Positions 7,325 through 38,726 of a stretch of 64,000 nucleotides of DNA are shown here, one piece after another (position 1 is the first letter of the stretch; every line of letters starts with the position of its first letter). Source of the stretch: Agmasoma carcini (nom. nud.) (Eukaryota > Microsporidia > Thelohaniidae). The notes beneath the pieces were generated by a model that was not told the origin of the DNA, did no database searches, and was given only the letters and a program-made list of their open reading frames with translations. The position numbers and the translations under genes were made by a program. The stretch lies in contig JAOXFI010000018.1 in NCBI GenBank assembly GCA_029232285.1, positions 1 to 64,000 of the forward strand, written 5' to 3'.

Positions 7325-7418
7325 ATAAATTTGTTAGATTATTAATTTTTCAAAAATATTAATTTAATTATAATTGATAATAAGTAAAACTTTAAGTTTA
7401 GTGATTAATAAATATAAT

Positions 7419-7960
7419 AATAAGTTTATTTATAAAATATGCTTGCTCAGGTAAAAGTAATATGAATTTAAAACCTGTCAGCACATTTTTTATAAGAATC
7501 TTAATTATAAATAAATTTACAGGAGTAAAAAAGCCTTAAACAAACAGCAATAATCAAAATGGGTTTTAAAAGGGACAGATTGGAGGGATAAAACCATACA
7601 CTATTCGTGTTTTGGTTAAAGAAGTAAAAAATTTGATTTCATGCTATCCTAAACCATCTTAGATGGTGACAGTAAAACTTTAAAGACATTATATTAAAGG
7701 ATGGGGTTGTAACTGGGCTTAGTCCCATTACGCAAACCTACCAGCTTATATCTTTGAAATCCAGAAGTGATACTTCCCTGCTAATGAATAAGAGGTACTT
7801 GTCTATTGACCGCAAATCAGTTTCCCAGAGTGAACAAGGTTATCCGTATACCCCACGATCCTGCTTTCCCTCTAGCAAGCCTTGACCTGTTATAACCAAA
7901 TTAGCCGTTGTTTCCAACATTACCACGTGGAGGTTTGGACACCTTGCAGAGTGTGAAAAG
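7419..7960 (+). repeat. Dispersed non-coding repeat, copy A
   Basis: About 540 bases similar to 28523-29032, 38397-38726 and, inverted, 29661-29800. Shared ordered blocks are: TATGCTTGCTCAG at the left; ACCATACA-TATTCGTG-TTTGGT; ACCATCTTAGATGGTGACAG (containing a palindrome); ACTTTAAAGA; CCAGCTTATATCTTT; TGACCGCAAATCAGTTTC; CAGAGTGAACAAGGTTATC; AATTAGCC; and CCACGTGGAG. All six frames are interrupted, so it is not a decayed gene of any family I know. Candidate identities: a non-autonomous transposon, a solo LTR, or a family of structured non-coding RNA. It is the longest copy. It fills most of the gap between the channel gene and the secreted protein; the rest of that gap holds nothing recognisable. 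Confidence 0.75.
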
Positions 7961-8439
7961 TTTCTACATTATATGTATTATGGTTGTCAATATTATTATC
8001 TTATATAATCTTTCTGAGCATGATTTAGGGTTAAAATTTTTTATTTAACGGTATTTATAGTCTCAGTCGGAACTGCTTCTTCTCATAGCCAAGATCAATA
8101 TATCTGTCACAATATGATTTTGCACTACTAAGAGACTAATGATTTTTGAATAGACAGTTTTTTTTCAATAAAAATTCAGAATATCACTAAAATTAACTTC
8201 ATCAATTTCTCTTCTTAAACAGAATATGTATTAATAATGATTAAAACAAACAAGGGCTTGCTTATACTAATAATATTCATAATTATATTTATTATTTGAA
8301 TCATATGAAACTATGTGATACATTCAACTTAATCTTTCATCAATTCTTTAAAACATTATATATCATAGCTCAGTTACTTTGATATGTACAATAATAAATA
8401 CAAACATTTTATGAAATAAAAATATTAAAATTATTTTTT

Positions 8440-9120
8440 TTAATTATCTTGATTATAACAGGGACTCTCCAACATCGATCCAATTCCTGTTTCTTCAATA
8501 ATAACAGTGTTTCTAATACCAGAATCTCCTTCGTGAACCTGCGTCACCTTTGCTTCAGACTCTATTGGGAAGCCTGCTGATCTTATCAACGCAGTAGCAA
8601 AGCTCGAAAGCATTTCATTTGAATTATTATTAAGGAAAACGAGCGATCTCTTCTCACATAAAGCATTAGTTCCTCCAGTAATAACTGGTACCTCTTGATT
8701 AACCTTTTTAAATGCCTCTTCTAGAGGATTTGGCTCACATGGAACGAATTCAATCACATTCATATCATTATCATCTACACTATAAGAGTTTAATCTACTT
8801 AAATAATCTTGAATACTCTGTGCACCACAAATACCACCAAAATCTTCATCTTCTTGATGATATTGATCAGCATCAGTCGTGTCAAGATTTATTTCTAATT
8901 TTCTTGGCTGGTTTTGTGATTCTAAAGCTGAATTGATGAAGTTAACTACCTGTTCTCTTGCTGATTCAATCTCTTCAGTAAGATTTCTGCTTTGTGCAGC
9001 TAGTAATCTCGAATAACTTTCAGGAATTAAGACCTTGACAGATATTTCCCTTACTGACTCTTCCCCAGCTAATGTGGCAGATGTGGTATTAAGAAATATA
9101 TGTGCAAAACTGAGTATCAT
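8440..9120 (-). CDS. Secreted hypothetical protein, possibly ADAM-like without active site
   Basis: 226 residues from the first true ATG (a TTG three codons upstream is not a plausible start). The N-terminus, MILSFAHIFLNTTSATLAG, is a likely signal peptide, so the product should be secreted or enter the endomembrane system. There is no transmembrane segment or GPI-like tail. Six cysteines remain in the mature part. The order of blocks (a VKVLIPESY strand, a helix with VNFINSALE, a GICG motif, then LCEKRSLVFL followed by a helix where metzincins carry HExxH) recalls reprolysin/ADAM proteases, but that helix reads FATALIRSAGFP with no zinc ligands. If related, it is an inactive homologue. Family membership is low-confidence inference; that it is a real secreted protein is well supported. 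It diverges from RanBP1 across a 276-bp gap. Confidence 0.75.
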   Translation of the reverse strand: MILSFAHIFLNTTSATLAGEESVREISVKVLIPESYSRLLAAQSRNLTEEIESAREQVVNFINSALESQNQPRKLEINLDTTDADQYHQEDEDFGGICGAQSIQDYLSRLNSYSVDDNDMNVIEFVPCEPNPLEEAFKKVNQEVPVITGGTNALCEKRSLVFLNNNSNEMLSSFATALIRSAGFPIESEAKVTQVHEGDSGIRNTVIIEETGIGSMLESPCYNQDN

Positions 9121-9396
9121 GATAAACAATGGTATTTTATTTTTATATATACCCTGAAACGTGTTTTAAATCAAGACAATGTTTTGATTTATTTGTTAAA
9201 GACAAGGGATAGTGGGAGTGTAATAAGTGATTGTTTGGTGATATATAATACTTTTGAACAATATAATTTATATTTTGTGATCTACATTTCATTTTTTTAT
9301 ATTTATCAAATGTTGGAGATTGTTTTATGATTTTCAAAGTTATTTATTTAGAGAGTTTGTAAATGAAAATTTTTTAAAAATATTTTTATTTTTCCC

Positions 9397-10056
9397 ATGG
9401 TTGAAGATAAAAATGATGTTAAGAACGAATGTAAAATGGAAGTAGTTGATAAGAATAATAAAGGAGAGGATTTGAACACCAAAGACGTTTCTAATCAAAG
9501 CACAGAAGAAAATATCAAATTAGAAAGCAAAGATAAAAAGGATGAAGATATTTTAAAAAGCGAAGATGAGAAAGTTGGAATTAAAGACGAGAAGAAGGCT
9601 TCTCCATTCTTGAAGTCCAAAGTAAAAGAGGATGACCCATTTAAGCTTGCCTTCAAACCAGTTAAAGAGGTGCACACCCATAAAACGTTATTTGAAGATA
9701 CCGTAAAATTGTACTATTTGAAGGATGAAACAAAGACTTTTGAAGCTAGAGGCCCTGGTAAGATATATATTTTACAGACAACTGATGGTTCACCATACAG
9801 ATTGGTTATGTATAGAGATGTTGTCAAGAGAAAGGGTTGTAATCATGTTGTTCAGCCTGAGCTTCCACTTAAGAAGGCTACCGCTAAAGAAAATTCTTTT
9901 GTTTGGGTTGCTTTAAATGATATGGCTGATTCAGATGAGAAGAAAGACAAAATGGTCTATTTTGCCACATTCGAGAAAACAGAGGTTGCTGAACTGTTTG
10001 AGTCTAAATATAATGAAGCTAGATTATATAACAAAGAAATCATACAAAAAAAATAA
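9397..10056 (+). CDS. YRB1: Ran-binding protein 1 (RanBD)
   Basis: 219 residues. The first 80 are charged and low-complexity (Lys, Glu, Asp). The Ran-binding domain spans about 85-215: it starts near PVKEVHTHKTLFEDTVKLYYL, has the FEARGPGKIYIL segment (E116, with R and G following; the family consensus is W/F-K-E-R-G-x-G), then RLVMYRDVVKRKGCNHVV and WVALNDMAD with the family's core aromatic. It binds RanGTP and, with RanGAP, promotes GTP hydrolysis and release of importins and exportins in the cytoplasm. There are no FG repeats, so it is RanBP1/Yrb1-like rather than Nup2-like. The ATG directly follows TTTTTCCC. Confidence 0.9.
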   Translation: MVEDKNDVKNECKMEVVDKNNKGEDLNTKDVSNQSTEENIKLESKDKKDEDILKSEDEKVGIKDEKKASPFLKSKVKEDDPFKLAFKPVKEVHTHKTLFEDTVKLYYLKDETKTFEARGPGKIYILQTTDGSPYRLVMYRDVVKRKGCNHVVQPELPLKKATAKENSFVWVALNDMADSDEKKDKMVYFATFEKTEVAELFESKYNEARLYNKEIIQKK

Positions 10057-10156
10057 ATTCAATATATCTATTTTGTTTGAAATTTGTGATCAGTAATGAA
10101 ACTAAATATATTGATTGGTTTTAAAAGAATAAAAAGATTGTTCAAGATGTTTCATA

Positions 10157-11875
10157 ATGGATCTCGTCGGGAAGTTAGACGATGTTATTAAGGAAATTGA
10201 GTTTATGATGGTTAATGATTTAGTAAGTAATTCTAAGCCTTGTCATAATATATTGGATGTATCTACGATAAAAGTTCCTAAGCTAGTGACCCTCACTGCC
10301 TCTGCATCTAGTCGAATTAAAACATCAACATTCGAGGTTGATGTTACTAAGAAAAATGTTATTGATACTTTTAACTTTGGAATAAAAATCCCATTTGCCA
10401 CTTGTGAGGTTAATTCTTGTGAAAAGGTCAAAATTGAGAATAGCTCATTTATTGGTGGAAATAAAGTTAAAATGTTAATATTTTCATTTGATGGTACGAG
10501 AGAGAGAAATAATGAAAAATTGGTCGATTATCCATCCTTTAGTACTTTAGAGGTATCTACGAATTCAAGTGCTCACTCAATCGGATTTTTTGCCGGAGAA
10601 GAAAACAAATTAGATGATATAAATAATATATTGACCTCTAATTTAAGCATATCACGGAATGCAAAAGAATACAATCACAGACAGAGTAAAATTAATGAAT
10701 TGGGTTCTTTTATTGGATATAATGAGCCAAAAAGTACACAGATATCTGAATTTGTAATTGAGAAAGGAAATATTGATGAAACGGGCACATTTACAGCTTA
10801 TGATGAACCAGAAATCGTAAAAACTAATGTCTTTAATGTTGAGAAGGGTAATATTGATGAAACGGGCACATTTATAGCTTATGATGAACCAGAAATTGTA
10901 AAAACTAATGTTTTTAATGTTGAGAAGGGAAATATTGATGAAACAGGTACATTTACAGCTTATGATGAACCAAAGCCAGCTAGGATTGAAATTCTTGATG
11001 TTGAGAAGGGAAATATTGATGAAACAGGTACATTTATAGCGTATAGTGAACCAAAGAGTGTTATTTTTGATAAATTTAGAGTGGATAATGGAAAAATCAA
11101 CGAAACGGGAACATTCATATCATATAATGAGCCAAAACAGAGAAATTATGATTTATTTAATTTTGAATATGATAAGAATGAAAAAACAAGTGAATTTATA
11201 TCACATAATAAGTCGACACCTGTCAAGACTGAAATAATGACTGTAAAGAAAGGCCAAATGAACGGTAAAATCGGGACTTTCACCTTAAATGAATTCCACA
11301 CTCCCCAAGCGCGAGTTGCTCCTAATAAAAACAGTTCTACATCGGAAGAAAACCTTAATCCTGCTTCAAGTAAGAAACAGACGAAAGGATCAAATGCTCG
11401 TGTATCTGGTAAATCAGCATGTCCAGATGCTAAAACTGCAATTAATAATTATGATCATGCCAACAAAGTTATTCAAATTGAAGATATTCTAAAGATTGAC
11501 TTGCTTTCGATAGAAGAAAGAAAATATATTGAAAGTGTGTTTTCAAGATTTTCAAAGACAAGTTTAATAGATATTGACACTCTTCAAATGCCAAGAATCC
11601 CTTCACTTGATTTTAATACTTTCATTTTTGAAAAACTACCTGAATCTGAAAATTCATTCTTCTGCAATGAAATTCTTAAATTTATATCTGAGGGATCTTT
11701 GGAATGTGATAAAAGGTTTTTAGAGTTGTTTGACAGTTCAATTGAGCGGTTAGAGAAGTATTCGTGTAGGAGTATTTGCAGGATAACAATTCACATGTCT
11801 ATAGCAAAGAGGTATATCACCGACTATATCAGAGTAAAGGAAATAATGGAGAAATATTCTAATATTAAATTGTAA
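10157..11875 (+). CDS. Repeat protein with about eight 27-residue units
   Basis: 572 residues, no known family recognised. Residues 179-373 consist of seven to eight consecutive 27-residue units, each containing an (I/N)DETGTF(T/I)AYDEP-like core followed by a variable strand and VEKGN. Outside the array are an N-terminal 170 residues with further F/G-spaced strands, a Ser/Thr-rich linker around 400-430, and a C-terminal predicted helical domain (about 445-572). There is no signal peptide or membrane segment. Units two to five are also nearly identical as DNA (81-bp period), which suggests recent unit duplication or gene conversion. The regular strand-turn units might form a solenoid or an array of short binding motifs, but this is inference. 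It follows RanBP1 on the same strand after 100 bp; the ATG lacks a CCC run. Confidence 0.85.
   Translation: MDLVGKLDDVIKEIEFMMVNDLVSNSKPCHNILDVSTIKVPKLVTLTASASSRIKTSTFEVDVTKKNVIDTFNFGIKIPFATCEVNSCEKVKIENSSFIGGNKVKMLIFSFDGTRERNNEKLVDYPSFSTLEVSTNSSAHSIGFFAGEENKLDDINNILTSNLSISRNAKEYNHRQSKINELGSFIGYNEPKSTQISEFVIEKGNIDETGTFTAYDEPEIVKTNVFNVEKGNIDETGTFIAYDEPEIVKTNVFNVEKGNIDETGTFTAYDEPKPARIEILDVEKGNIDETGTFIAYSEPKSVIFDKFRVDNGKINETGTFISYNEPKQRNYDLFNFEYDKNEKTSEFISHNKSTPVKTEIMTVKKGQMNGKIGTFTLNEFHTPQARVAPNKNSSTSEENLNPASSKKQTKGSNARVSGKSACPDAKTAINNYDHANKVIQIEDILKIDLLSIEERKYIESVFSRFSKTSLIDIDTLQMPRIPSLDFNTFIFEKLPESENSFFCNEILKFISEGSLECDKRFLELFDSSIERLEKYSCRSICRITIHMSIAKRYITDYIRVKEIMEKYSNIKL
10691..11257 (+). 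repeat. 81-bp coding repeat array
   Basis: Seven in-frame 81-bp units (27 codons each) begin at 10691; a degenerate eighth begins at 11258. Each starts at an ATT/AAT codon ahead of GATGAAACGGGCACATTT or a variant. Units starting at 10772, 10853, 10934 and 11015 differ by only a few bases, with many changes silent, while the outer units are more diverged. That gradient is typical of arrays that expand from the centre. Confidence 0.9.
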
Positions 11876-11939
11876 ATAATTTTCCCTCTTTTTATTTTAA
11901 AATTTTGAATATATTTAAAAATAATATAAAATTTTTGCC

Positions 11940-12917
11940 ATGTCGGTTTTGAGATTGGAAGGAAACAAATTGTATCTAAATGGAAGACTAGAGTATGACT
12001 TCGAACATATGAAGAAGTCTGCATGCGAAATCAAAGAAGGTTGCACCGATAATATTAAGTTTGTATGTAAAAATGGGGTTGAAATTCAGGATGTAGGGAG
12101 TATTTATCAAATTTATAATGGGATTCTTTATTATCTTGATAACTCTGATTTGTATTCGGTTGATTTGGAATCATCAGAGAAAAAAATGATTGATAAAAAT
12201 GTAAGAAACTTTTACTTTGATGAGAACATAACGTTCTATGTCAGAAAAGAGCAAATCTGTGATTATAACGGTGAAAAATTCAAGTATGGGCATAGGATTG
12301 ATAAATTTTTGAGTGTTAATGACACTCTTTACATAGTAAGTCAAAACAGGGTGCTTATGTATGAAAATTCCAAGTTTGTTTGCAAATTTGGGTTTATTGG
12401 GAGATTTACTGATGCTGTGTGTGATTCTAAATATATCTACGTATTGAGTGAGGATTTATTGATAATTTATGATGTTGTGAGGTGTGTGGTGTTTAGCAAA
12501 GAGTGGATTGTCAATAATTGTCATAATGTTGTGTTTGAAGATAAAGAAATTATTTCTAAGAGTAAGATAAAGAACATATTTAATCCTGATGAAGATAAGT
12601 TTGAGGGTTTAAACCTAGAAAATAAGATGTCTGCTAGTCTAAATGGGGAAGTTTTGATACTTTATGATGATAAGATAAAGTCTGTCTTTGTTCTGCCCAC
12701 CAAATCTAATTTTATTTGTGGGAATGTTGTGTATTCTCTTAAAATAGCAAAAAAACGTAATGTGCTAAGGAAATATAAAATTTATCTTGATTCCATTATT
12801 TTTGAAAGGGAATATAGTTTGAGACTTGAATCACAGATTCAGAGAATTGATGGTGATCGAATCTACACGGAAAATAAGATCTACGACTTAAACGGAAGGA
12901 TTATTTCTATTTTATGA
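11940..12917 (+). CDS. Hypothetical protein, beta-propeller-like
   Basis: 325 residues, unrecognised. The sequence consists of short alternating beta-strand and turn segments spaced about 40 residues apart (YQIYNGILYYLDNSDLYSVDL, FLSVNDTLYIVSQNRVLMYE, CDSKYIYVLSEDLLIIYDVV), as in divergent beta-propellers, without the GH and WD signatures of canonical WD40 repeats. There is no signal peptide or membrane segment. The start ATG follows AAAATTTTTGCC exactly, so the start is secure. The gene is convergent with the next one (90 bp between stop codons). Function unknown; it could be a scaffold subunit in trafficking or RNA processing, but nothing specific is visible. Confidence 0.8.
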   Translation: MSVLRLEGNKLYLNGRLEYDFEHMKKSACEIKEGCTDNIKFVCKNGVEIQDVGSIYQIYNGILYYLDNSDLYSVDLESSEKKMIDKNVRNFYFDENITFYVRKEQICDYNGEKFKYGHRIDKFLSVNDTLYIVSQNRVLMYENSKFVCKFGFIGRFTDAVCDSKYIYVLSEDLLIIYDVVRCVVFSKEWIVNNCHNVVFEDKEIISKSKIKNIFNPDEDKFEGLNLENKMSASLNGEVLILYDDKIKSVFVLPTKSNFICGNVVYSLKIAKKRNVLRKYKIYLDSIIFEREYSLRLESQIQRIDGDRIYTENKIYDLNGRIISIL

Positions 12918-13007
12918 ATTAAATCTTTGAATTTTTAGTTTTTAGCAATAAAATATGATTTTAAGATTAAGTACCATCAAAATATACAAAATTTAATAAA
13001 AAATTGA

Positions 13008-13394
13008 TCAACTATAAACAATTTTATTATCTTCAATATTAAATACAACATCTTTTAGGTTAGTAAAAACACAGTCAATCACGTTTTTTAAGAACTCTAA
13101 ATAAATTTCTTCAGTTTCCCAAATATTTTTATCAACAAAGCAAATCCTTTTGTTCTGAATTTGAACTTTACAGTCAAGATATTCCAACATGAATTTAACT
13201 AAAAGTTCATCAATGTTTTCCTGTTTGGAGAAAAGATTGTTAGAACAATAAAAATCATCACTTATAGACTCACCAACGTTCCTACCAAGCTCAACAATCT
13301 TAGATTTATAATCAGTTTCACTTTGAACTATCTTTTTTATCACTGAAGTGTAAACCGCTACAAAAAAATCATAATCTACTTCTTTGGTTGACAT
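13008..13394 (-). CDS. Possible TRAPP subunit (Bet3/Trs31-type fold)
   Basis: 128 residues from the first ATG (a TTG two codons upstream is rejected). The segment FVAVYTSVIKKIVQSETDYKSKIVELGRNVGESISDD resembles the helical core of Bet3/Trs31/Trs33-family TRAPP subunits: a hydrophobic helix, a Lys-rich spacer, then an LG-x-VG motif. The rest also fits in size and alpha/beta pattern. TRAPP tethers ER-derived vesicles and acts as a Rab exchange factor at the Golgi. The resemblance is by eye and short, so I hold it loosely; the ORF itself looks genuine. Its start is preceded by AAATAATTTTTTTGTTT rather than a CCC motif. Confidence 0.6.
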   Translation of the reverse strand: MSTKEVDYDFFVAVYTSVIKKIVQSETDYKSKIVELGRNVGESISDDFYCSNNLFSKQENIDELLVKFMLEYLDCKVQIQNKRICFVDKNIWETEEIYLEFLKNVIDCVFTNLKDVVFNIEDNKIVYS

Positions 13395-14124
13395 AAACAA
13401 AAAAATTATTTTTTTCTTAAAAATTTTATTTTGTATTAAAAGGTATTATTTTATTAAAAATACTAAACCAACACGTATGTAATAAATATTAATGCTACAC
13501 ATCTACCATGATTGAATTTTTTTAATAGAGATTACTTGCTTTATTGGTTTTTTAGTAAACAAGATTCACTAAGATTGCAAATATTTGAAAGTTGGTCATT
13601 TCTCTCTATTGTATTTTGTTATATACTGACGAGATTTTAATATCTAACCAGTTCTTGATAATTAATAAGATTATCATTTTATATTCTTCATGTTTGAAAA
13701 TATACTATATATCTTTCCTTGTGCTGTCTACAGCTAGAGTAGTCGCCATAATTGATGTTTATATTGAATCGCCTTAGTTTGCACAACCATTTTTATGTAC
13801 CTATTCGAGTTTAAGCCTATTGTCTAACCTTTTGGTCAGTTTTGAATCACATTGATTTGTTATAAAAGTCTTTTAGTGAGTTTAAGGTCACCCTTTTGTA
13901 TACTTACACAGTTGGAATTTGTTGAATGACACATATTAGTACTTCTGTATGTTAATATGTTTCTGTTTATAAACATTGTAAGCCCTCTTCCATTTTTGAT
14001 TAAATTTTCATTATAATTAAAATTTAAAAAACGATAATAAAATTCAACCTTGTCAAAGTCAAACAAAATTAGAATATTTCAAAAATAAAAAAATATTTTT
14101 TTGTAAAAAAGTTTAATAAAAAGA
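13395..14124. other. Intergenic, no supported gene
   Basis: Open frames on both strands here lack an ATG start or any family resemblance and have ordinary A+T-driven composition. No repeat or RNA gene was recognised. The left end holds the promoter of the minus-strand TRAPP-like gene; the right end is the 3' side of the Hsp70 gene. Confidence 0.5.
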
Positions 14125-27749: not shown

Positions 27750-27878
27750 ATAACTTGAAAAAAATGATTTTTTACAATAATTTATATTTTATTATATAAT
27801 AAATTTTTGATTAGAGAAACGGTTTATGTTTTAAAAAATATAACAATTTTATAAAATTCAAAAAAAAATTATAAAAAT

Positions 27879-27948: not shown

Positions 27949-28010
27949 CATTTGTTTACATACATACAATTATTAACTGTATTATTTTATTATTTTACAC
28001 AATTATTTAT

Positions 28011-28190: not shown

Positions 28191-28522
28191 AAATAATTTT
28201 TTTGTGCAGATTTAATAGAAGAGTTAAATTTTTTGATATCAAATAAATATTTTAAAAGTGATCTTTGTAAATATTATTACTTTAACTAGTATTTATTATT
28301 GTAATTTTGAAATAAATTATTGAGTATAAATGTTACAAGATAAATTTATAATCTTTAATTGATTTTATATTTAATCATGATGTATAATTTATGTTTATTA
28401 TAAGAAAGATTGTGATTTTTAGCTAGGAGATTAAAATACGAACTAAAATTATGGTTATTATTCGTTATTCACATACGTGACGATAAATCTTGATCAATTT
28501 AATTATATGAAATGACTTTATT
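28191..28522. other. Intergenic, nothing recognised
   Basis: A+T-rich DNA between the 59-residue gene and dispersed repeat copy B. No coding region or motif seen beyond the promoter of the minus-strand gene. Confidence 0.5.
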
Positions 28523-29032
28523 CAATAATAAAAGTTTATTTGTCCAATATGCTTGCTCAGACAAAAGTATGAAAAAAAATACAAACAACACAAAGTATTG
28601 TCAATTGGAAACCTCTCTGCCAATATTCACGTTTTTTACAAGGAATTTTAGTTATCAATAAACTTACCATAGGAGAAAAGCCAAACCAGCATATAAAAAT
28701 AATAAAATATAAAAGGGACAAAAACAAATATTAATGACCATACATTATTCGTGCTTTGGTAAAAGACAGTAGAAAAAATTGATTGTCATACTATCTTAGA
28801 TGGTGACAGTAGTACTTTAAAGATATTATACTATATTGTAGCTAGGTTAGTGCTATTACTTACGTATAACAACCAGCTTATATCTTTAAGAAGTGTGTGT
28901 TTATCGACCGCAAACCAGTTTCACAGAGTGAACAAGGTTATCTGTATCCTTACAGCTCTGCTTTAGCCTAATTAGCCATTTTTTCCAACCTTATCATTCT
29001 GTACCATTTTGAGGTGTATTCATCGCAGAACA
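28523..29032 (+). repeat. Dispersed non-coding repeat, copy B
   Basis: Aligns end to end with copy A (7419-7960) in the same orientation. Shared blocks include TATGCTTGCTCAG, AAAAGGGACA, CCATACA-TATTCGTG, ATCTTAGATGGTGACAGTA, ACTTTAAAGA, CCAGCTTATATCTTT, ATCGACCGCAAACCAGTTTC, AGAGTGAACAAGGTTATC and AATTAGCC. The intervening DNA has diverged and has small deletions, notably around copy A's 7720-7790 segment. No reading frame is conserved. Confidence 0.75.
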
Positions 29033-29660
29033 ATAATATAAATAAAATATTTAAATAAATTTGTAAATTTTTGATTATTATAGCTTTATATCAATATGTG
29101 ATTTAAAATAGAGATTAAGAACAATATTTATTTAGTAAATCTAAGATTTAAGGGTTAATTTTAGTGTAATTTTACATATTTTTATGAAAGGCAGTGTTGT
29201 ATGATTTGTAAAACTGTTAATAACAATATTATTTTGTGTTCAATAACAATATTTTATGATTAATGTTTAATAAATCATCATAATATGAGAGATTAGATGT
29301 ATAAACACAGTCTTAGTAGTCATTATATACTTAAAAGCATGTCTTTAATGTTTTGTTAAATTAATTAATTGAAATATAGTAATTAATAAATAAATTTAAA
29401 TAAGAATTGTAGTGATGAATATAAAAATAGAAAAAAATCAAAATATTTATTGAGATCTTACGGTGTTTATTATAAAGTTACATATAATAATCACATTATG
29501 TTATATTGATTAGTGATCGTTAGTTCTGCCAAGAGACCAGATCTATACATTTAGCAAAATAGAAACGTTAAAAAATAACTTATTGGGCTAAAGCAAAAGT
29601 AAGAAAATACGGTAAAACTTATTCACTTTAAGAAACTACTTGTGGTATTAAAAAATATAT

Positions 29661-29800
29661 CATATTGGCAGAGAAGGTCACTTCTGTAATTCAAAAGATA
29701 AGCTGACACGTGTGCATCGATTGCTAAATCAACTGCAACCCTATCCTTAGTATGCGTCTTTAAAGTTTTGTTGTCACCATCCTAAATGGTTCAAAAGGGT
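29661..29800 (-). repeat. Dispersed non-coding repeat, copy D (inverted fragment)
   Basis: The reverse complement of this segment reads ACCATTTAGGATGGTGACA, AAAACTTTAAAGA, AAGGATAGGGTTG, CAGCTTATCTTT and CAGAAGTGA-CTTC, matching the middle of copy A (7650-7780). It is only about 630 bp from copy B and in the opposite orientation. The rest of 29033-30638 holds no supported gene. Confidence 0.65.
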
Positions 29801-30625
29801 GAGATATTCTGTTTTTCTGCCATTTTTATTAAAGAAATATTGTTGTATGATTGTTATATCGCTTTACGTTACTTATCTATTGAATCTTACCACTTATTTG
29901 TATGATTTTTACATCTTTATCTACTTTTCTCTATAAATACTAACTATTTTTGATTTTTTAAGGAAGGTTAAAACAATTATTATTCAACATTCTTGGTGGG
30001 TTTTCGGTTTTCTGGTACAAAAAGCCTATTTATTATTTCATTTAAGCAAATTACTTTGTTTTATATAGCAGATCATCACATACAATAATGTACAATAATG
30101 TTTTTGAAACTATTTTCATAATCAAAAGACTTAAAAACATGATTTCGAACAAGCATGACCATCAATTAAGTACACCTTTGGCTAGTTTATATTATTTTTG
30201 CTGATTTCATTATTTCTACACAATAAAAATCAAATTATATAATCAGCTCAAGAATACAAAGGAGAATGCCTAAGCACATCATTTTTAATTATAATTATTA
30301 GATAACAACAGCTTCCCCCTCAAAAATCAATATATTAGACTTTAGCTAATAAATGCTACATTTATATATATTATTTAGAGACAATCCATCATAAAGCTTT
30401 AATGTTATGAAATAAACAAATTATTTAATTTTTTTAGGTTTTTTATACAAATTTTAAATAAAAACAAACATTTTGTATATTTGTATGTTTTTTACATGTT
30501 ATTTCTAATTTTCGTTATATTTAACTTATGTGCCACAGTTTATTTGAACCCCTTTACCAACCTTTGAATTAAGGGACAGTTTCTATTGGTAGAACATTAA
30601 AGGATTCAAAACATAAAAGTTTTTT

Positions 30626-30638
30626 AAATTTTACCCCC
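30626..30638 (+). promoter_or_regulatory. Start-site motif AAATTTTACCCCC (clearest example)
   Basis: AAATTTT followed by ACCCCC directly abuts the ATG of the BAR-domain gene. The same AAATTT block, then CC or CCC, then ATG arrangement recurs before most genes in the window, on both strands. Microsporidian studies describe AAATTT-like and CCC-like signals at start sites; here it helps decide which ATG is used. Confidence 0.7.
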
Positions 30639-31337
30639 ATGAAGGTTATCAATGACACAAAGAAGATGCTCAAAAGAAAGTTTTCTAAGTTTAACGAATA
30701 TAAATATGCTGTGTTACCAGATGATTATAACGTAGTTGAATGTGAGTATAAACGAGTAAGGGATAGTATGGATCCTGTGATGGGTATTGTAAGTTCGTTA
30801 TCTTCATATGAATATGGTGGAGAAAGTCTTAAAGCTTTTCATTCTTTTACAGGTTCTATAGCTAAGGCTGCAAACCTTGAAAGTCTTGAATCTTGTGATG
30901 TCTATCGAAGTATTGGACTTGCTGGTGAAAAAATTAAAAAGACGGGTGATCACAGCTTTCAAAACCTTTGTGGATCCTTTGGTAAGGCCTATAATGAAAT
31001 TTCAGAGAGTAAGAAAACCATGAATAAGTCTTTGAACGAAATTCAAGGTCTTCTTAAGAAAGAAAAACAAAAATTTTCTAAAATTGATGCTCTTAGACGT
31101 GAAGTTGATGAAAAGAGGTATGATTATGAAGAGATGATGATTTCTAACAATGATGTTAGTCAGAGTGACAAAGAAGCTTTACATAATACCTTCTCGACCA
31201 AGGCTAGCGAGGCAGTAAATTCAATGTCGGAGCTATCAAGCTCAAATGGAACAATACAATCTCTTCTTAGAAAGGTTTTTGATACCCATAAGAAATTTAC
31301 AAAGGAAGGTATTGAAGCACTTGAGAAGATTCAATAA
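30639..31337 (+). CDS. BAR-domain protein
   Basis: 232 residues, almost entirely helical, with no signal peptide or membrane segment. The pattern fits a whole-length BAR domain: a basic N-terminal helix, YKRVRDSMDPVMGIVSSLSSYEYGG in helix 1, GLAGEKIKKTGDHSFQNLCGSFGKAYNEISESKK across the kinked second helix, and the FSKIDALRREVDEKRYDYEEMM segment that matches the K-x-x-R-x-D-Y-E hallmark of amphiphysin/Rvs/Gvp36-type BAR domains. BAR dimers bind and curve membranes in endocytosis and Golgi traffic. No SH3 domain follows, so it is closer to Gvp36 or endophilin-like stand-alone BAR proteins. It is isolated between two long gene-free stretches, yet has the best start motif in the window. Confidence 0.75.
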   Translation: MKVINDTKKMLKRKFSKFNEYKYAVLPDDYNVVECEYKRVRDSMDPVMGIVSSLSSYEYGGESLKAFHSFTGSIAKAANLESLESCDVYRSIGLAGEKIKKTGDHSFQNLCGSFGKAYNEISESKKTMNKSLNEIQGLLKKEKQKFSKIDALRREVDEKRYDYEEMMISNNDVSQSDKEALHNTFSTKASEAVNSMSELSSSNGTIQSLLRKVFDTHKKFTKEGIEALEKIQ

Positions 31338-32539
31338 AATTGTGATTTGAATAGTTTTTTAAAATATTATATTTATATATGATGTGGTTGTTTTAGTTTG
31401 ATCAAAAATATTAGGAATTATTTTACATATTTATCATAAATGATTGGAATGGGTTTTTAAGAGCTATTTAGGAAATAATTCAAGGTTATTATATATCACT
31501 TGATTCAATTATTATTAATTTATAAAAGACTTCATTATCAAATATTAAACAAAAATAGGATTATAAACCGAGTAAATTATGTTGAAACAAGTAGATTGAC
31601 ATAAATATTGTCTTTGTCATATTTAAATGCAATATATTTTACATTTATTATATAAAATATGGTTTTTGGGAATAAAAATAATCATGAGCGAAAATGTTAA
31701 TCACAAATAAATAAATTGATTTTTATCATTTAAAAGTATACAATTTATTCTTTTAATTTCGAATTTTAATTCTTTTTTAAACTATTCGGCTGCCTGTGCA
31801 TTTACTCTATTACTCAGGTTGACAAATATATATTAATATATAGACCATCGTATATAAATCTTAATTGATTAAATTTGCAATAACTTCTGTGCAAACTTAG
31901 ATACAGCTAATTGGAATTTAATTTTTTGGCCATTTGATTTGAATTACTCTGGTCTAATATTATATTCAATAATACAAATTGTGTCAGTTTATTGTATAAT
32001 TTCCCCCCTCTGTGACTTTATTTTTAAAATCTAGCATATTTACATTAACTTGCACTGTTAGACTTGGTCCTCCTAATTTATCTGATTAGAAGCTGACAAG
32101 TGGTACTAAGTTAATAGATTTGTTAATTGTTTTATAAATAACCCTGATTTGTTTTTTTATCAATGAACTCTTAATCTCTCACCAAGTAAGTTATTAAAAT
32201 ATTTCTAATATTATTTTATATAATTTAAGTATTTTAATTTACATCAATTCCCTACATAAACATATATACTTCTTTTGTAGGATTCGGGTAACGTTATTAT
32301 ACAGTTATTACACCCTTTTTTACATTAATTAACGTTTAGTTATAACCCTCTGGTGGTAAATGTATATATAATAGGTAGTAATTGATTAGAGTCAGTTATT
32401 TATCTTTTTTCTATAGAAGTGAAGAAATTATTCATATGATGTCTTCTTAGGATACCAAAATATCAAATCTTTGTTTTTAAAGTTTCATAAGCGTTCATGA
32501 GTGATTTTGAATCACACCCCAAAAATTACCCAATTTGTG
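31338..32539. other. Gene-free stretch
   Basis: No coding region, RNA gene or transposase motif was recognised. Some patches (near 31980-32120) are less A+T-rich than the rest. Confidence 0.4.
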
Positions 32540-32760
32540 AATATTAATTTGAAGATACGTGCTTTGGTGAATTTAAAAAACTTACTTAAAGAATTTAGAA
32601 TTGATAAGGTTGTTGCAGATAAATAACTTAATTTCACTTGAGAAGTATTGCGCTATGAGCATGATTTACCAATAGAAGATGTGATGATTTTTAAGAAATG
32701 CAACTCTATTAGAAAAGGTGCATTCTTCAAAATATAAAACATTAATATCAAGGTATTTTA
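32540..32760 (+). pseudogene. Decayed transposase-related segment
   Basis: Shares DNA with the minus strand of 20220-20340 (TTTAGAATTRATAAGG, TTGTTGCRGA, TTTCACTTGAGAARTATTG). Conceptual translation gives FRIDKVVADK and KKCNSIRKGAFF, the latter resembling the block after the zinc-binding Cys pairs of Merlin transposases. Stops interrupt it. Probable Merlin relic, weakly supported. Confidence 0.4.
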
Positions 32761-32879
32761 AAGGATTTGACTAGATATTTTACAATAGGTAGTCTTATAT
32801 TACTGCTAGGTGCTGTGATAATGTTTTTATAGGGTTTCTCGATCTATATGGTCGGTTTTTTAAAATATGACTTTATTTT

Positions 32880-33640
32880 TCGTTTTGTTTTAATGACCGG
32901 CAAATAAGAAATTTCACAAGAAGATAGAGAAGGAATTGCAGCAAAAGCTGATGCTAGATAGACGATAATATAAAATGCAAGAATTATAAGACATTATCAC
33001 GATACTGAATCTGTTCAATCAAAAACAGGTGCGGTGGTAAGCGTTCTAAACTAAGTTTAGAAGCGATGTGTGGCTGGATTGATGAGTGTTGTACATTAAC
33101 ACTTAAGTTGATTTCAAATAATCTTAGTGAAAATTATAACATTTTTGTTTCTACATGCACTATTGATAAATGTTTTATTATTCTTTAAAACGGTTTTCAA
33201 TAGTTCCTGAGAAACGAAATTGTGTCAATACAATGAATCTGAGATAGACATATGCAAAGAAAAAGGGACTTTAGAGAAACGCTAAATATAAAAACTTTAT
33301 CTTTATTGATGAAATTAGATTTTCTGTTTCGACAAGGACATTCACTAGTCGGGACTAGCCACAACAAATGTTCCTACTGTAGAAAAAAAACATTTCTGTT
33401 TTGTTATGATGAGCAAGTACTGCATGTTATACAATAAAATTCATATACGCTCTATCAATGGTGATGATTCCAAATCTTGTTTGGTTAATTTAAAATGGAA
33501 TTGTGAAAGACGTAACATTCTTAACTTATTTTTATTTTAGATAACGCTAAAATTTATCACTATCATGGTATTCTCTATTTCTGAATCTTATCGAGAATTG
33601 TTTTTCTAAAAATATTTGATATATGATGAGATTTCAAGTA
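32880..33640 (+). pseudogene. Tc1-type (DDE_3) transposase pseudogene
   Basis: Plus-strand frames together show an N-terminal helix-turn-helix (ARIIRHYHDTESVQSKTGA), VPEKRN, then a frameshift into the first catalytic Asp region (FIFIDEIRFSVS) and SLVG-T-x-x-x-x-VPTVEKKHFCFVMMSK with NGDDFKSCLVNLK-like sequence. This order is that of the Tc1/IS630 DDE_3 superfamily. At least three frameshifts and stops separate the pieces. It is a different lineage from the 61.7-kb element. Confidence 0.65.
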
Positions 33641-33779
33641 TCATCTCTAATGATTATAAAAATATGATTTTAGATATCTTAATCTTCCGAGTTAAAAAAA
33701 TCATTTATACTTAAATAAACAGGTTTTAATTTTTAAAATTTATTATAATTATTGCAACCCCGCTCATATAAATTTAGAA

Positions 33780-34130
33780 ATTCTATATTAATACCTGGCG
33801 TATTTGACTATGTTCCTGCTCCTGATTTCATTCATAACGAACTGGGTGGTCTTGATAAAATTAATAAGAGTAGATCTTCAACCAATAAATCAAATGGGTT
33901 ATGTATAGTAAAGTAGGTAATGGCAAAATATCTCGTGTTTATACACAAGTTATCGTTCATAAAACAGCTAATACATTTTACTATTATTAATAATCTGGCT
34001 TTATCTAATACCATGATTTTTACAGATGAAGCTTGTGTATAAGATACGAACAAAACAAGGAACTGTCTGTCATAAGTATTGTATTGTTGACACTCAAAAC
34101 GTTTAAAGTTTTAATCAAATATGAGATTAA
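33780..34130 (+). pseudogene. Merlin transposase fragment
   Basis: Translation yields KWVMYSKVGNGKISRVYTQV, then a helix and NTMIFTDEACVYKIRTKQGT-like sequence followed by CHKYCIVDTQNV. That fits the Merlin core: the W-V-x-G strand after the first Asp, and G-S-x-I-x-x-D-E-x-x-x-Y before H-x-x-V. Frameshifts lie near 33830 and 33970. Confidence 0.55.
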
Positions 34131-35449
34131 AACGAGAAGAGGAGTACTAATGATCTGTCATTCATAATCTATAAAGGTTTTTTAGTAAAAACAAGAAAAA
34201 AACCCCATTAAAAAATTGTTGTGATTTTTGATTTTTAGAAAAGTAATGTTTTGTTTTTATTATATAATGTGTAAATTATATTATCGTAACTGTCATACAC
34301 GTGATTTGATTAGAAAATTGATTAACGGTGATGAGATTTCATATTATTACTCTAGAAAAGTGTGAATATTCTTTATTTTTTACATAATGTACTTTCAGAC
34401 AGACGAGAATAAGAAATTAGAGTTTACAAAGATCAACCTAATCACTAAATAAAATATTAATTTTTTTTAATATTATGCCCAGAGAAACTAATAAAATTTA
34501 TATTGTTGAATTCCACTTAATATGAGCGAAGAAATTTTATATTGACTGCTTAATAAAGAATATTTTTTTGTACAATTTAGAATTACCGGGAATAAAATTA
34601 TAATCTTTTATGACCATTTTAACTGATAATTGCCAAGCAGAGGGTTATTTTGAATGTACTAAAAATTAGGATTATAGTTTATTTTGTAATCAGGAAAGAA
34701 ATACAAACTATAATAAAAACCAGTTTTTACAATATACAACAAGATGTTTCTATTCAGCTGAAAATATTTGCTTCTAAAAATAAAAATCTATGTAAAATGC
34801 ACAGGAGCTTGAAGGAAAAAAATACTTGTAATAATTTAGTTTCTATTAAAAATTTTATAGACCAAAACCTGTTATATAATGAAATATAAAAAATACCACT
34901 TTATATGATTTAAAGGTTTTTGGTGATTTTTCAATTGAAATTTAGAGTTTTGGTAAAATATTTCAAATAATTGTCTAATAAGTAATTAAAAACGGTTGTA
35001 ATATTAGTAGATACAGTGTTGATAAAATAATTAATGAATTTAGTCAAAACAACTGATGTTAAATGTAAAAATTATCGTAAGAGGTCATTACACAATAGAA
35101 CAGGTGGGTTTTCGCAACCACAATTCAAATAAAAAAGAAATATTAATCATAACAATTGTTTGTCGGGGTGCAGCATAATAGATAAATTGAACTGATGAAC
35201 ACATGTCCTATAATTGTCTAAAATATTTTAATTATACATATGATATCATTTGCTATAAATCATAATACAAGGTACCCACACAAGCAGTTAAATCATTCAA
35301 TAATATTATAAAGGTATACATACTAATAAGAGAACAATAAAATGTGTTTTTTGGAACAACAAACATAAGAATGCCTGAACTTAATAAAATTTAAATTTTT
35401 ATATTTTTAAAAATAATAAAACTACAGGAGAGGGTCTATAAAGACACTA
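34131..35449. other. Gene-free stretch
   Basis: No gene recognised. The open frame at 34650-34889 starts at a non-ATG codon and has no family resemblance. Possibly further decayed transposon DNA. Confidence 0.4.
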
Positions 35450-35830
35450 TGATAAAAATAAGTAGTTTTGACAAATTTAATAGTGAATATTGTCGAGATT
35501 GATAAATTTTTATTATTAAACGAAAATATAACTGAAGAAGGTTCACGGGTTGTAGACGAAATTGAAAAAGGGGATCTGGAAAGTGTTTTATAGTTATCAA
35601 TAGAAACAAAACTAATGATAGCACGAATTATAACGGAGAACATTAAATAAAATAATTTATTATTAATGAATAGCGTTCTCATATCAATATTTAATATATT
35701 GAACATTAAACGTTACCCATTCTTATAATTTTTGGTCTTTAATATACACACAAAAACAATTGGAAGTATGTGATCGAATTCGAAATTAAAAAATATTTAT
35801 TAATCAATTTTTTATTATAAATTAAAAGAT
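35450..35830 (+). pseudogene. Merlin transposase fragment
   Basis: Plus-strand translation gives VEIDKFLLLNENI (first catalytic region, Glu of DESK lost), GSRVVDEIEKGDLESVL, IARIITENIK, LLMNSVLIS at the second Asp site and NIHTKTIGSMWSNSKLKNI, the H-T-x-x-I-E-x-x-W-x-x-x-K motif. Stops occur after VL and IK. Old dead copy. Confidence 0.6.
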
Positions 35831-36294
35831 AGAAAATATTATTTTTTTATAACTGATATGCTCTGATGGTTATTATTAAGAGTTTATTTCTCTGACCAGT
35901 TTTTCAAAAAAATAAAATTTTGCTCAGGGTGTAGAGTAATTACAAAAATCCTACAGAATGGTCTTGAGCCGAAATTACAGTGTCGTACAATTTTGCTGTC
36001 CGGGGCAATATTTTTACGAATTCTAAAAATTTTTAAAAATAACCCCAGTAATGACGTAAAAACATTTTATTTGTTAAATGATTGAACCTATTTCTTTTAT
36101 GTATGATTTATACCTATCAACATAAAAATCATTTGATATTTTAACATTTCTTGGTAGAATAATTGTATGTAGTATTTCTTACACATATGTTGAAAAAATA
36201 ACTAAAGAATTTAATATGTTAATTTTGGAGTGAATTAATAATATAAAAAATAACAATACTAATGTTATTAATGTACTAGAAAGGGGGTTCTTCA

Positions 36295-36430
36295 TTTTAT
36301 CGTTTATTGTTGTGGTTGTAACATTAAAAAATTGGATTTCAAATCTAAAGAATTCACTGAAAAGGCAAATATATCTATCAGTACATGAAAATGTAAAAAG
36401 TACAATATCAATGGTACAATTTAAAAAAAA
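36295..36430 (+). pseudogene. Tc1-type transposase N-terminal fragment
   Basis: DNA such as ACATTAAAAAATTGGATTTC and AACTGAAAAGGC...CTATCTATCAGTA-like sequence matches the N-terminal helix-turn-helix part of the transposase in the 61.7-kb element (its minus strand, 62690-62800). It is in the opposite orientation to that copy. Only the N-terminus is left. Confidence 0.5.
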
Positions 36431-36540
36431 TGGTTCATGAAGGCTCGTTTTAATTATATCAGAAAGATCCAAAAGTTTAAATGTTAATTCAGTCTTTTTA
36501 GACATCAGTTAAATTATATATAATATTATTCTTAAAAAAT

Positions 36541-36603
36541 TAGCTCTGATCTACACTGGTAGAGTCATGATAACTTTTCTGTTTTTTGACAAACTTGTAT
36601 ATG
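36541..36603 (-). repeat. Solitary Tc1-type terminal repeat
   Basis: TAGCTCTGATCTACACTGG, TAGAGTCATGATAACTTTTC and GTTTTTTGACAAACTTGTA match the right terminal inverted repeats at 62957-63017 and 18551-18609. The adjacent transposase fragment (36295-36430) is in the wrong orientation to belong to the same end, which suggests rearrangement or nested insertion. Confidence 0.6.
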
Positions 36604-37205
36604 CTTTCAACTGATAAATTAATATTTATTTTTATAAAAGTGGTTGTATCAATTTTAAAAAAGAATAAACATATAAACATTTTTTAATCTTATCAAGATA
36701 CCCCTTAAAAACAATTTTTTGTTTTAGGTGGTTCGAAAACATATTACAAGCTGTACAAAATACGTTAAAAACGTTTTTTGATAATTCTTCAATGATACTA
36801 AGTGTTTTAAGTCCGATTTGTCAAATTTATGATTTTATGTTTAATTTTAAGTAAATTTCATATTTTAAGAATTGGTGATGATTTTTTAAACTGGTTAATG
36901 ATAAGAGTCTAATAATTCTATTACCCACTTTACAAAGGACTATAATATGAATTAATGATCAAAATATAACCAATTTTAAGCTTTTCTCTTTAACAATAAT
37001 TCATATTATAAACTTTGTTTACTTAATTGATGATGTTCAAGCTTGAAATATTGAGTCTTTATGGAATAAACTAAAAAATATGATGGTTTCTTATAATCGT
37101 ATTTATATGAGTGAATGTGAAAAGATAATATTTCAAAAAGTAACTTTGATCAATATATTGATTTTAAAAACCATATTTTTATATCAGAGAGAATACTAGA
37201 TCTTA
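36604..37205. other. Gene-free stretch
   Basis: Nothing recognised on either strand before the stop codon of the Tfb1-like gene. Confidence 0.4.
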
Positions 37206-38207
37206 TTATTTACTTGATTTTATCTCCCGAACAAACTTAGGATCAAATTTTTTAACCAACTCAAACGCTTCCTTACCATATTTGCTTTCAATAGTGTTTC
37301 TGAACTGACTACTAAGTCTCTCTATTTCTTTTTCCATATCTTCATCAATCTCTTTAAGTGAATAAATCACTTTTGAAAAATCTTTAGCCCACAACAAGTC
37401 AGATTTATCAATATCAACATAAGAGCTCTGCTGTGGATCACTTTCAACTTTAACACTAAAGTAAAGTGGCTCATCTCTAATAAATGTCTTTATATCTTTC
37501 TTTTCTACATCCAATCTAAAAGGACACGTTGGCTCAAAATTCACACATCTAAATTTTTTCGTTATATTTATTGGCTTAGGTGGTTCCTTATTTGAAAGTA
37601 TAGAATATGTGTTGATTCTAGATGCATAGCTACTATCGACCGTGAAATTTCTAACAGAATGCTCCAATAGCCTATCAAATACATTTTTGTTATTACCGAT
37701 ATCATAAAAATATGAACTAGTAAAGTTATTATAAAACTGATTAACACTACAATTCATTTCTATAAACACATCAATAAGATTTTGGTTAAGACTTTCAATA
37801 AATTTATCTTCAAATATATCATTAACTGGTTTTTGACTGTATATATTTGATTTTGGTAGAATTTTAGAAAAAATATTTTCTTCTATTAAATTCTTAAGAC
37901 TGTTAAAAGCAGTATGAATATCGTTATTTGATTTGAGGATTCTTGATAATTGATCATTGTTTGGTGCTATAAGCTTAACAAGTATGGTTTTTACAATATC
38001 GCGCACGTGCACTACTGTAAATGATAAAATAACAGCAGATTCGTCTTTCATTTTCAATTTAAGAAGGAAAATATCTGTAGATTTCGTATGGAGTGACTTT
38101 ATGTCATTATAATGATATTTATCTGTTGAATCTTTAATAGATATGCATGTTTCTTCTATAATCATGGTTACATCCTTGTTGTTGATCCTAGTTGGAATTC
38201 TTAACAT
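37206..38207 (-). CDS. TFB1: TFIIH subunit Tfb1/p62-like protein
   Basis: 333 residues against 642 in yeast Tfb1. Residues 1-85 have the seven-strand pattern of the Tfb1 PH domain. Around 150-180 is NQFYNNFTSSYFYDIGNNKNVFDRL, which parallels the p62 BSD motif (E-F-W-x-x-F-x-x-S-x-Y-F ... D-x-F), with Tyr in place of Trp. The C-terminal 60 residues form charged helices like the p62 C-terminal anchor. Tfb1/p62 is a core TFIIH scaffold for transcription initiation and nucleotide excision repair. The assignment rests on fold order plus one motif, so it is moderate. The ATG is preceded by AAATTTTTTATTACAG, which has an AAATTT block but no CCC and a splice-acceptor-like CAG. Confidence 0.62.
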   Translation of the reverse strand: MLRIPTRINNKDVTMIIEETCISIKDSTDKYHYNDIKSLHTKSTDIFLLKLKMKDESAVILSFTVVHVRDIVKTILVKLIAPNNDQLSRILKSNNDIHTAFNSLKNLIEENIFSKILPKSNIYSQKPVNDIFEDKFIESLNQNLIDVFIEMNCSVNQFYNNFTSSYFYDIGNNKNVFDRLLEHSVRNFTVDSSYASRINTYSILSNKEPPKPINITKKFRCVNFEPTCPFRLDVEKKDIKTFIRDEPLYFSVKVESDPQQSSYVDIDKSDLLWAKDFSKVIYSLKEIDEDMEKEIERLSSQFRNTIESKYGKEAFELVKKFDPKFVREIKSSK

Positions 38208-38396
38208 CTGTAATAAAAAATTTGGTTCGAGTTAAATATCTAAAACAAAAAAATTATTTGAGTTACTTGATTACAGGATTTCAAATTATTATAAAAATTA
38301 GAGTAATAGTGATTGTAAATATCTTCATATTTTCTAGAAAAGTAGTATTAATAGAGAAAGACAGACCAACATGTAAAACTCCAAAAATTGGGGTGC

Positions 38397-38726
38397 ATCA
38401 GCAATAAGTAAGAAACGTATATCAAGGATGGCAATCATACACTGATCGTTCTTTGATAAAAACTCATAAAATCAGAATATAATTTTTATTAGGTGGTGAC
38501 AACAAAACTTCAATGGTACCTACCATAGTATGAGGTTACAGCTAGATTTATCGATCACCCACATCGAGATACTAAGGTGTCCTTCTTTACCAACAAGAAA
38601 AGTTTTTAACTATCGACCGTAAACCAGTTTTCCAGCGTGAACAAGATCAGTTATAGATAAATTAGTCTTTATTTATAACGTTTCAACTCTACACCACGTG
38701 GAGTTTGAATGCTATATAGAGTTTAA
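38397..38726 (+). repeat. Dispersed non-coding repeat, copy C
   Basis: Matches the 3' two thirds of copy A: CATACACTGATCGTTCTTTG, TTAGGTGGTGACAACAAAAC, GGTTACAGCTAG, ACTATCGACCGTAAACCAGT, CCAGCGTGAACAAG, AAATTAGTC and CACCACGTGGAGTTTGAA. A possible further partial copy follows at about 38770-38870 (GACCATACACTCACCGAGCTTTTGTTA). The left part (TGCTTGCTCAG block) is missing. Confidence 0.65.

What the first reader, a model, noticed from the sequence alone, without database searches (positions are those of the whole stretch)
7419..38726. Undescribed dispersed non-coding repeat family with ordered conserved blocks
Four copies (7419-7960, 28523-29032, 38397-38726, inverted 29661-29800) keep the same order of 12-20 base blocks while the DNA between them has diverged and no reading frame survives. 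The blocks include GACCGCAAACCAGTTTC, CAGAGTGAACAAGG, CCACGTGGAG and ATCTTAGATGGTGACA. Islands of conservation in non-coding DNA suggest either a non-autonomous transposon with functional ends, a solo LTR, or a structured RNA family. I cannot match it to Merlin, Tc1 or pogo ends in this window.
Basis: seen in the sequence. Interest (0 to 1): 0.8.

Follow-up and report, generated by a model that had tools for sequence, protein, structure and literature searches.

The report
Microsporidian short retroelement with HDV-like ribozyme
The repeats are worn copies of a short, protein-less jumping element in a microsporidian parasite genome that appears to begin with a self-cutting RNA of the hepatitis-delta type, a design known from insects and trypanosomes.

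Summary
The repeat is real: at least 74 places on 42 contigs of the 4.26 Mb genome. In the other orientation, near-full-length copies average 533 nt, start GCTCTG.GATGAGTCC and end CAAATAAACCTTTTATTATT. Variable-length target duplications abut base 1: 15 of 34 copies score 8 or more against 54 of 1122 mismatched flank pairs; 0 of 20000 permutations reach the total. There are no terminal repeats and no frame over 64 aa. This points to target-primed reverse transcription: a SINE-like retroelement.

The first 69 nt of the majority sequence form a complete HDV-type double pseudoknot; a strict descriptor of it gave 0 hits in 15.65 Mb of random sequence. Rfam HDV-type models match there, all below threshold. 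Against: copies show no covariation beyond shuffles, and cleavage is untested.

Most likely: a non-autonomous, LINE-dependent element freed from read-through transcripts by its 5' ribozyme, like R2 SIDEs and trypanosomatid SIDERs. No partner LINE sharing its ends was found. The blocks are a decayed family, one of them the ribozyme core.

The parts
7414..7952 (-). near-full-length copy (profile 1-549 at 7951-7414, plus base 1 at 7952); its ribozyme region lacks the 10-nt block that carries most of the P1 3' strand
28525..29031 (-). near-full-length copy (profile 2-549 at 29029-28525; base 1 is the G at 29031); keeps the P1 3' block, but its ribozyme region is worn (15 of 24 pairs)
38298..38706 (-). 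partial copy (profile 16-492)
28964..29031 (-). region corresponding to the predicted HDV-like ribozyme at the 5' end of the 28525-29031 copy (worn)
   Evidence: no Rfam ribozyme match in this copy

Best explanation
The repeats are decayed copies of a SINE-like, protein-less non-LTR retroelement of about 530-550 nt in a microsporidian genome. Shown by sequence: a dispersed family with sharp 5' and 3' ends, variable-length target duplications that abut base 1 in a good part of the copies, a short ATT-type 3' tail, no reading frame, and no terminal repeats. Predicted: the first 69 nt of the RNA fold as an HDV-like self-cleaving ribozyme whose cleavage point is exactly the 5' end of the inserted element. 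Inferred: the element is transcribed as part of a longer host transcript; the ribozyme cuts the RNA just before base 1; a LINE reverse transcriptase acting in trans recognises the 3' end and copies the RNA into nicked DNA, making the target duplication. After insertion copies decay, mostly by G:C to A:T changes, and about a third carry the same 10-nt deletion that removes most of one strand of ribozyme helix P1.
For: Family and ends: 65 profile matches in 46 segments (231,646 nt), 39 of them running from profile position 1-10 to 540 or beyond. Target duplications: among 34 copies, 15 score 8 or more with the repeat anchored within 1 nt of base 1, against 54 of 1122 mismatched pairs; 0 of 20000 permutations reach the observed total. 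Examples: C13 TAGCATTAAATACT, C3 TTAAAATCACAACARTA. Non-coding: longest frame 64 aa in the majority string, no codon periodicity. Ribozyme: the majority of 20 rows (20 of the 36 rows that keep the P1 3' block, chosen by eye as the less damaged) gives P1 GCTCTGC/GCAGAGT with G1.U, P2 AGTCCAG/TTGGGCT, P3 ACC/GGT, P1.1 CC/GG, P4 CGTTG-GAAA-CAACG and J4/2 GCTAA. A strict descriptor of this fold hits the majority at base 1 and gives 0 hits in 12.8 Mb and 2.85 Mb of Markov sequence. With fixed spacing, all 8 positions that form 22 or more of 24 pairs, among about 457,000 tested, are 5' ends of this element, one of them 24 of 24 (C40:21475). Rfam HDV-F-prausnitzii matches start at base 1 in 4 of 16 loci searched; drz-agam-1 matches one of these copies starting 1 nt upstream.
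Against: All Rfam ribozyme matches are below the curated thresholds (27.6 bits at best against 44; E 0.13 to 3.4). The third model, drz-agam-2-2, overlaps one copy but starts 33 nt upstream of base 1, so it is not in register. 12 of the 16 loci and the window copy give no ribozyme match. Pair counts across the 20 chosen copies show no covariation above shuffles (103 to 170 of 500 shuffles reach each measure), so the copies do not by themselves prove the structure. The fold was first read off copy C40:21475 (L010) and the consensus, so the fixed-spacing scan is partly circular; 3 unrelated positions reach 21 pairs. No real copy in the 231 kb passed the strict descriptor; the best copy fails my rule of two G-C pairs in P3 (my reading of its sequence). 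Base 1 is G in only 19 of 34 copies. No target duplication reaching 8 was found in 19 of 34 copies. No partner LINE with the same ends was found.
Confidence: 0.8

Rival explanations
1. SINE-like retroelement without a working ribozyme: the 5' end resembles an HDV fold by chance, and transcription starts at base 1 from an internal promoter.
For: No covariation among copies; sub-threshold Rfam scores only. A box-A-like motif has one mismatch, but 140 of 200 shuffles do as well.
Against: 0 descriptor hits in 15.65 Mb of random sequence. The fold lies exactly at the insertion junction, where ribozymes of R4, Dong and other LINEs cut (PMC3774820, passages read). Two Rfam HDV-type models agree on strand and on the start to within 1 nt. 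No box B (best 3 mismatches, 162 of 200 shuffles as good).
Confidence: 0.14
2. Solo LTR or non-autonomous DNA transposon (MITE): copies left by recombination or cut-and-paste transposition.
For: Size and dispersion fit a solo LTR. Gypsy-type reverse transcriptase/integrase frames exist in the genome (C21, C37, judged by eye from the frames).
Against: No terminal inverted repeat (score 5, 233 of 500 shuffles as good) and no direct one (477 of 500). The majority begins GCTC and ends TTAT, not TG...CA. Target duplications vary in length, whereas LTR elements and DNA transposons make fixed short ones (recalled).
Confidence: 0.03
3. A family of functional structured RNA genes or regulatory elements kept by selection.
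For: Ordered blocks; slightly uneven conservation (1 of 2000 permutations reaches it).
Against: Copies sit 7-30% from the majority, with the change dominated by G:C to A:T, no covariation, truncated and neighbouring copies, and duplicated target DNA at the ends of many. This is decay, not maintenance.
Confidence: 0.03

Closest known systems
R2 SIDE and R2/R1 hybrid SIDE of Drosophila (PMC3414825; abstract and the R2 SIDE section read)
   Same: 529 bp in D. willistoni, protein-less, HDV-like ribozyme at the 5' end, spread by target-primed reverse transcription; that SIDE also has a 197-bp middle of unknown origin.
   Different: R2 SIDEs sit at rDNA sites, share ends with R2 or R1, and were shown to self-cleave. 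This element is dispersed, has no identified parent, and is untested.
Trypanosomatid SIDER / NARTc / RIME with Pr77 ribozyme (PMC4035085; passages read)
   Same: Short, often degenerate elements with a 5' HDV-like ribozyme; only some tested copies fold and cleave.
   Different: Those share the 77-nt Pr77 hallmark with L1Tc/ingi LINEs. No LINE with this 5' end was found here.
Dong and R4 LINEs (PMC3774820; section 16 and passages read)
   Same: LINEs with HDV-like ribozymes that cut at the element 5' junction; Dong cleavage was confirmed there in vitro.
   Different: Autonomous coding elements. Dong-R4 LINEs are listed for Nosema bombycis (table passage of PMC3614468), but here no shared ends with the LINE loci held were seen.
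Rfam HDV-F-prausnitzii and drz-agam-1
   Same: Match on the element's sense strand, starting at base 1 (HDV-F-prausnitzii, 4 copies) or 1 nt before it (drz-agam-1, 1 copy).
   Different: All scores below the gathering thresholds; drz-agam-2-2 overlaps one copy but out of register.

Membership tests
HDV-like self-cleaving ribozyme | P1 of typically 6-7 bp, its 3' strand directly after P3/L3 (PMC3774820) | tested here: met
   Majority: 7 bp, columns 1-7 with 32-38, 87.1% of cells paired in the 20 chosen rows; 16 of 52 copies lack most of the 3' strand
HDV-like self-cleaving ribozyme | P2 of at least 5 bp, P3, P1.1 and optional P4 in a double pseudoknot | tested here: met
   P2 7 bp 91.3%, P3 83.1%, P1.1 71.8%, P4 83.0% of cells; strict descriptor satisfied by the majority
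HDV-like self-cleaving ribozyme | Catalytic C in J4/2 | tested here: met
   C at column 59 in 17 of the 20 chosen rows; T in 2, A in 1
HDV-like self-cleaving ribozyme | Covariation supporting the helices | tested here: inconclusive
   103-170 of 500 shuffles reach the observed values; 9 cells with a change on both sides against a shuffled mean of 6.7
HDV-like self-cleaving ribozyme | Score above a curated Rfam threshold | tested here: not met
   Best 27.6 bits against 44
HDV-like self-cleaving ribozyme | Self-cleavage in vitro | not testable with these tools
   needs bench work
SINE-like / non-autonomous non-LTR retroelement | Dispersed, short, non-coding, no terminal repeats | tested here: met
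SINE-like / non-autonomous non-LTR retroelement | Variable-length target duplications | tested here: met
   15 of 34 copies at score 8 or more vs 54 of 1122 pairs; 0 of 20000 permutations
SINE-like / non-autonomous non-LTR retroelement | Pol III promoter (canonical SINE) | tested here: not met
   box A and B matches no better than shuffles (140 and 162 of 200; box motifs recalled)
SIDE (short internally deleted LINE) | 5' and 3' ends shared with an autonomous LINE of the genome | tested here: inconclusive
   No shared ends seen with the LINE loci held (whose printed output was cut); four stretches fetched around 3'-end hits held further copies, not LINEs. Not exhaustive: the whole genome is not available as a file
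LTR retrotransposon solo LTR | TG...CA ends, constant short duplication, coding element with two copies | tested here: not met
   first two features; a coding element with two copies was not searched for as such

The most novel reading that the evidence does not exclude
The ribozyme stays folded while the element is reverse transcribed, and the polymerase often skips the P1 3' strand by jumping between two GTGGT repeats 10 nt apart. About a third of new copies are thereby born unable to free themselves again, so the ribozyme that launches the element also limits its spread. Basis: the same 10-nt deletion occurs in 16 of 52 copies that reach the 5' end (profile start 20 or less). On a tree of 43 copies it is scattered (11 changes for 13 carriers; shuffled mean 11.4, 248 of 500 shuffles as low). 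Carriers are no more diverged than other copies (0.839 vs 0.848 identity to the majority, p 0.57). It is the commonest exact deletion of 4 nt or more (13 of 43). Against: other exact deletions recur in 10 and 8 of 43 copies, ordinary replication slippage between the same repeats after insertion would look similar, and 24 of 40 inner branches of the tree are unresolved.
Probability: 0.2. Interest if true: 0.62.

Novelty: new member of a known kind. Interest (0 to 1): 0.5.

Why it matters
HDV-like ribozymes at LINE and SIDE 5' ends are documented in animals and trypanosomatids (PMC3774820, PMC4035085, PMC3414825). In the open papers searched I found none that couples them with microsporidia (0 papers; 6, none on the subject by title and start of abstract; with fungi: 2, likewise). 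A compact microsporidian genome carrying at least 74 copies would extend this ribozyme-launched way of retroposition to another major lineage. It also gives a concrete end structure for annotating the 'unknown' repeats of microsporidian genomes (14.06% of N. bombycis in the table passage of PMC3614468), and a cheap in vitro test.

Tried and rejected
Solo LTR, MITE and RNA-gene readings were rejected. A pol III promoter was sought and not found. The LINEs at C48 were examined as parents: no shared 5' or 3' end was seen (the printed output was cut, best E shown 0.001). The weak match behind that E-value, in L044 (C59), is a partial element copy at C59:4091-3830 on the opposite strand to, and about 0.7 kb from, a broken LINE reverse transcriptase. 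Four stretches around 3'-end hits without a known body were fetched as possible LINE 3' ends; all four held more element copies. I first aligned copies in mixed orientation, which misaligned part of the rows; the mistake exposed the true orientation and the 5' end. The 10-nt deletion was tested as an inherited subfamily and does not behave as one.
Full report
What was given. The blocks are where stated. The window comes from a microsporidian: a MICSWaP spore-wall protein lies at 8440-9120, and the closest organism-named match to the lipin gene is Vittaforma corneae at 49% identity. The genome held is 4,263,419 bases in 69 contigs.

The family. Two window copies used as queries gave 53 matches each in the genome. 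A 5' query gave 42 and a 3' query 41. Listed by hand, overlapping rows dropped, and merged within 150 nt, these are 74 places on 42 contigs. This is a lower bound, because at most 40 candidates are scored per query; merging joined neighbouring copies at C40 and C21 and counted one C47 copy twice. A profile run over the 46 merged segments held (231,646 nt) gives 65 matches, 39 of them from profile position 1-10 to 540 or beyond. In the window the copies are 7951-7414, 29029-28525 and 38706-38298 on the minus strand, and 29525-29930 and 63918 onward on the plus strand. The finding is therefore right that a family exists, but it reads the family in antisense, understates the inverted copy, and misses a fifth copy.

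Ends and mode of insertion. Read in the other orientation, base 1 is G in 19 of 34 copies (A 10, T 4, C 1), followed by CTCTG.GATGAGTCC in the majority. Copies end ...CAAATAAACCTTTTATTATT or similar; 21 of 34 hold TTATTATT at the end. The flank just before base 1 is repeated after the tail in many copies. In an unanchored comparison of 40 copies, 8 reach score 12 or more against 6 of 1560 mismatched pairs. Anchored to base 1 in 34 copies, 15 reach 8 against 54 of 1122, and 0 of 20000 permutations reach the observed sum. Repeat lengths vary, roughly 8 to 20 nt, imperfect ones included. In 19 of 34 no such repeat reached 8, as expected for old copies, but this is also a gap in the evidence. No terminal inverted or direct repeats exist. 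This combination is that of target-primed reverse transcription.

Coding and conservation. The majority string (572 columns, 41% GC) has no frame over 64 aa, and conservation shows no 3-base phase. The 43 copies used there run 426-604 nt, mean 533. Mean identity to the majority is 84%, individual copies 70-93%. Changes are dominated by G-to-A (786) and C-to-T (713). Window means run 0.71-0.94, and their variance is reached by 1 of 2000 permutations: some unevenness, but not the islands expected of selected copies.

The 5' end as ribozyme. The majority of 20 rows (chosen by eye as the less damaged of the 36 rows that keep the P1 3' block) folds as P1 columns 1-7/32-38 with G1.U38, P2 12-18/63-69, P3 19-21/29-31, P1.1 23-24/39-40, P4 44-48/53-57 with a GAAA loop, and J4/2 58-62 with C59. 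The helix scheme and the C in J4/2 agree with the description of HDV-like ribozymes in PMC3774820 (section 16 read whole; passages). The G.U at the cut site and the CC/GG make-up of P1.1 are recalled features of HDV. A strict descriptor hits this string at base 1 and gives 0 hits in 12.8 Mb plus 2.85 Mb of Markov sequence; it also gives 0 in the 231 kb of real segments, where the best copy has only one G-C pair in P3 and my rule asked for two. With fixed spacing, copy C40:21475 forms 24 of 24 pairs, and all eight positions at 22 or more among about 457,000 tested are 5' ends of this element; of the four positions at 21 one is an element end and three are not. That scan is partly circular, since the scheme was read from these sequences. 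Independent models agree in part: HDV-F-prausnitzii matches at base 1 in L010. In one search, run on 16 of the 30 loci that brought, it matches in 4, all at base 1 (one is the L010 copy again); drz-agam-1 matches one of them from 1 nt upstream, and drz-agam-2-2 overlaps another but starts 33 nt upstream. All are below threshold. The window at the gathering threshold and the window copy alone gave no ribozyme match.

Evidence that did not help. On the 20 rows the pairs are kept in 85.7% of cells against 28.6-46.7% when slid, but shuffling the 3' letters does as well in 103-170 of 500 shuffles on the five measures. The copies have decayed from a common source and carry no covariation signal. The case for the ribozyme rests on the fold of the source sequence and its position at the junction.

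The recurrent deletion. 16 of 52 copies lack exactly the 10 nt between two GTGGT repeats, which holds most of the P1 3' strand; some of the other 36 carry different damage. On a 43-copy tree built without the first 100 alignment columns, the 13 carriers need 11 changes (shuffled mean 11.4), so the deletion recurs; carriers are not more diverged. It is the most frequent exact deletion (13 of 43; others reach 10 and 8). Whether it arises during reverse transcription or later cannot be told.

The helper. The genome holds LINE reverse transcriptases, best at C48; 18 of the 19 matches to it contain stop codons. The sequence has relatives among LINE-1 and R2 structures and among LINE-like proteins of fungi and microsporidia; the clade was not resolved, and Pfam gave nothing for the stretch after the reverse transcriptase. 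None of the LINE loci held was seen to share the element's ends, and four stretches around 3'-end hits held further copies. A trans-acting LINE is therefore inferred, not shown.

Comparison. The design matches R2 SIDEs (529 bp in D. willistoni, ribozyme shown to cleave; PMC3414825 abstract and section 5 read) and trypanosomatid SIDER/NARTc (PMC4035085 passages). Dong and R4 LINEs also carry such ribozymes, Dong shown active (PMC3774820 passages). SINE (0.18%) and Dong-R4 (1.04%) are listed for Nosema bombycis, and 'ribozyme' does not occur in that paper's main text (PMC3614468, find results). Searches for microsporidia with 'HDV-like ribozyme' gave 0 papers, and with 'ribozyme' and 'retrotransposon' 6, none on this subject by title and start of abstract. 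I therefore call it a new member of a known kind.

Noticed in passing
G000 C48:39202-39564 and C48:40982-41344 (L079:6202-6564, 7982-8344): A second short repeat of 363 nt (96% identical pair) ending AATAAATAC.TTTTTTTT; one copy sits inside a LINE reverse transcriptase frame with a CATTGCTAACCTCT duplication. Looks like another small retroelement; parts of it match three other contigs.
   Followed up: partly
G000 C48:25000-42071 (L078, L079): LINE copies lie on one strand one after another, next to the end of a small-subunit rRNA gene at the contig edge.
   Followed up: partly
G000 C18:19894 (L055): After this element copy's 3' tail the 5' flank plus the first bases of the element occur again, as if a copy inserted at or next to another element start.
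   Followed up: no
whole genome, contig ends: 24 of 66 listed places with known contig length lie 5-13 kb from a contig end (15.2 expected, 14 of 2000 simulations as high), while 2 of 66 lie in the last 5 kb (9.9 expected). Possibly subtelomeric targeting; whether contig ends are chromosome ends is unknown.
   Followed up: partly
L049:871-934 (G000 C20): SNORD31-like C/D box snoRNA match, 33.7 bits against a threshold of 40.
   Followed up: no
L040 (C21:1-2186) and L042 (C37 end): Long open frames of Gypsy-type reverse transcriptase/integrase, 728 and 582 aa, cut by contig ends (type judged by eye).
   Followed up: no
window 10671-11217: 81-nt tandem repeat inside the frame 10157-11875, so a 27-residue protein repeat.
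   Followed up: no
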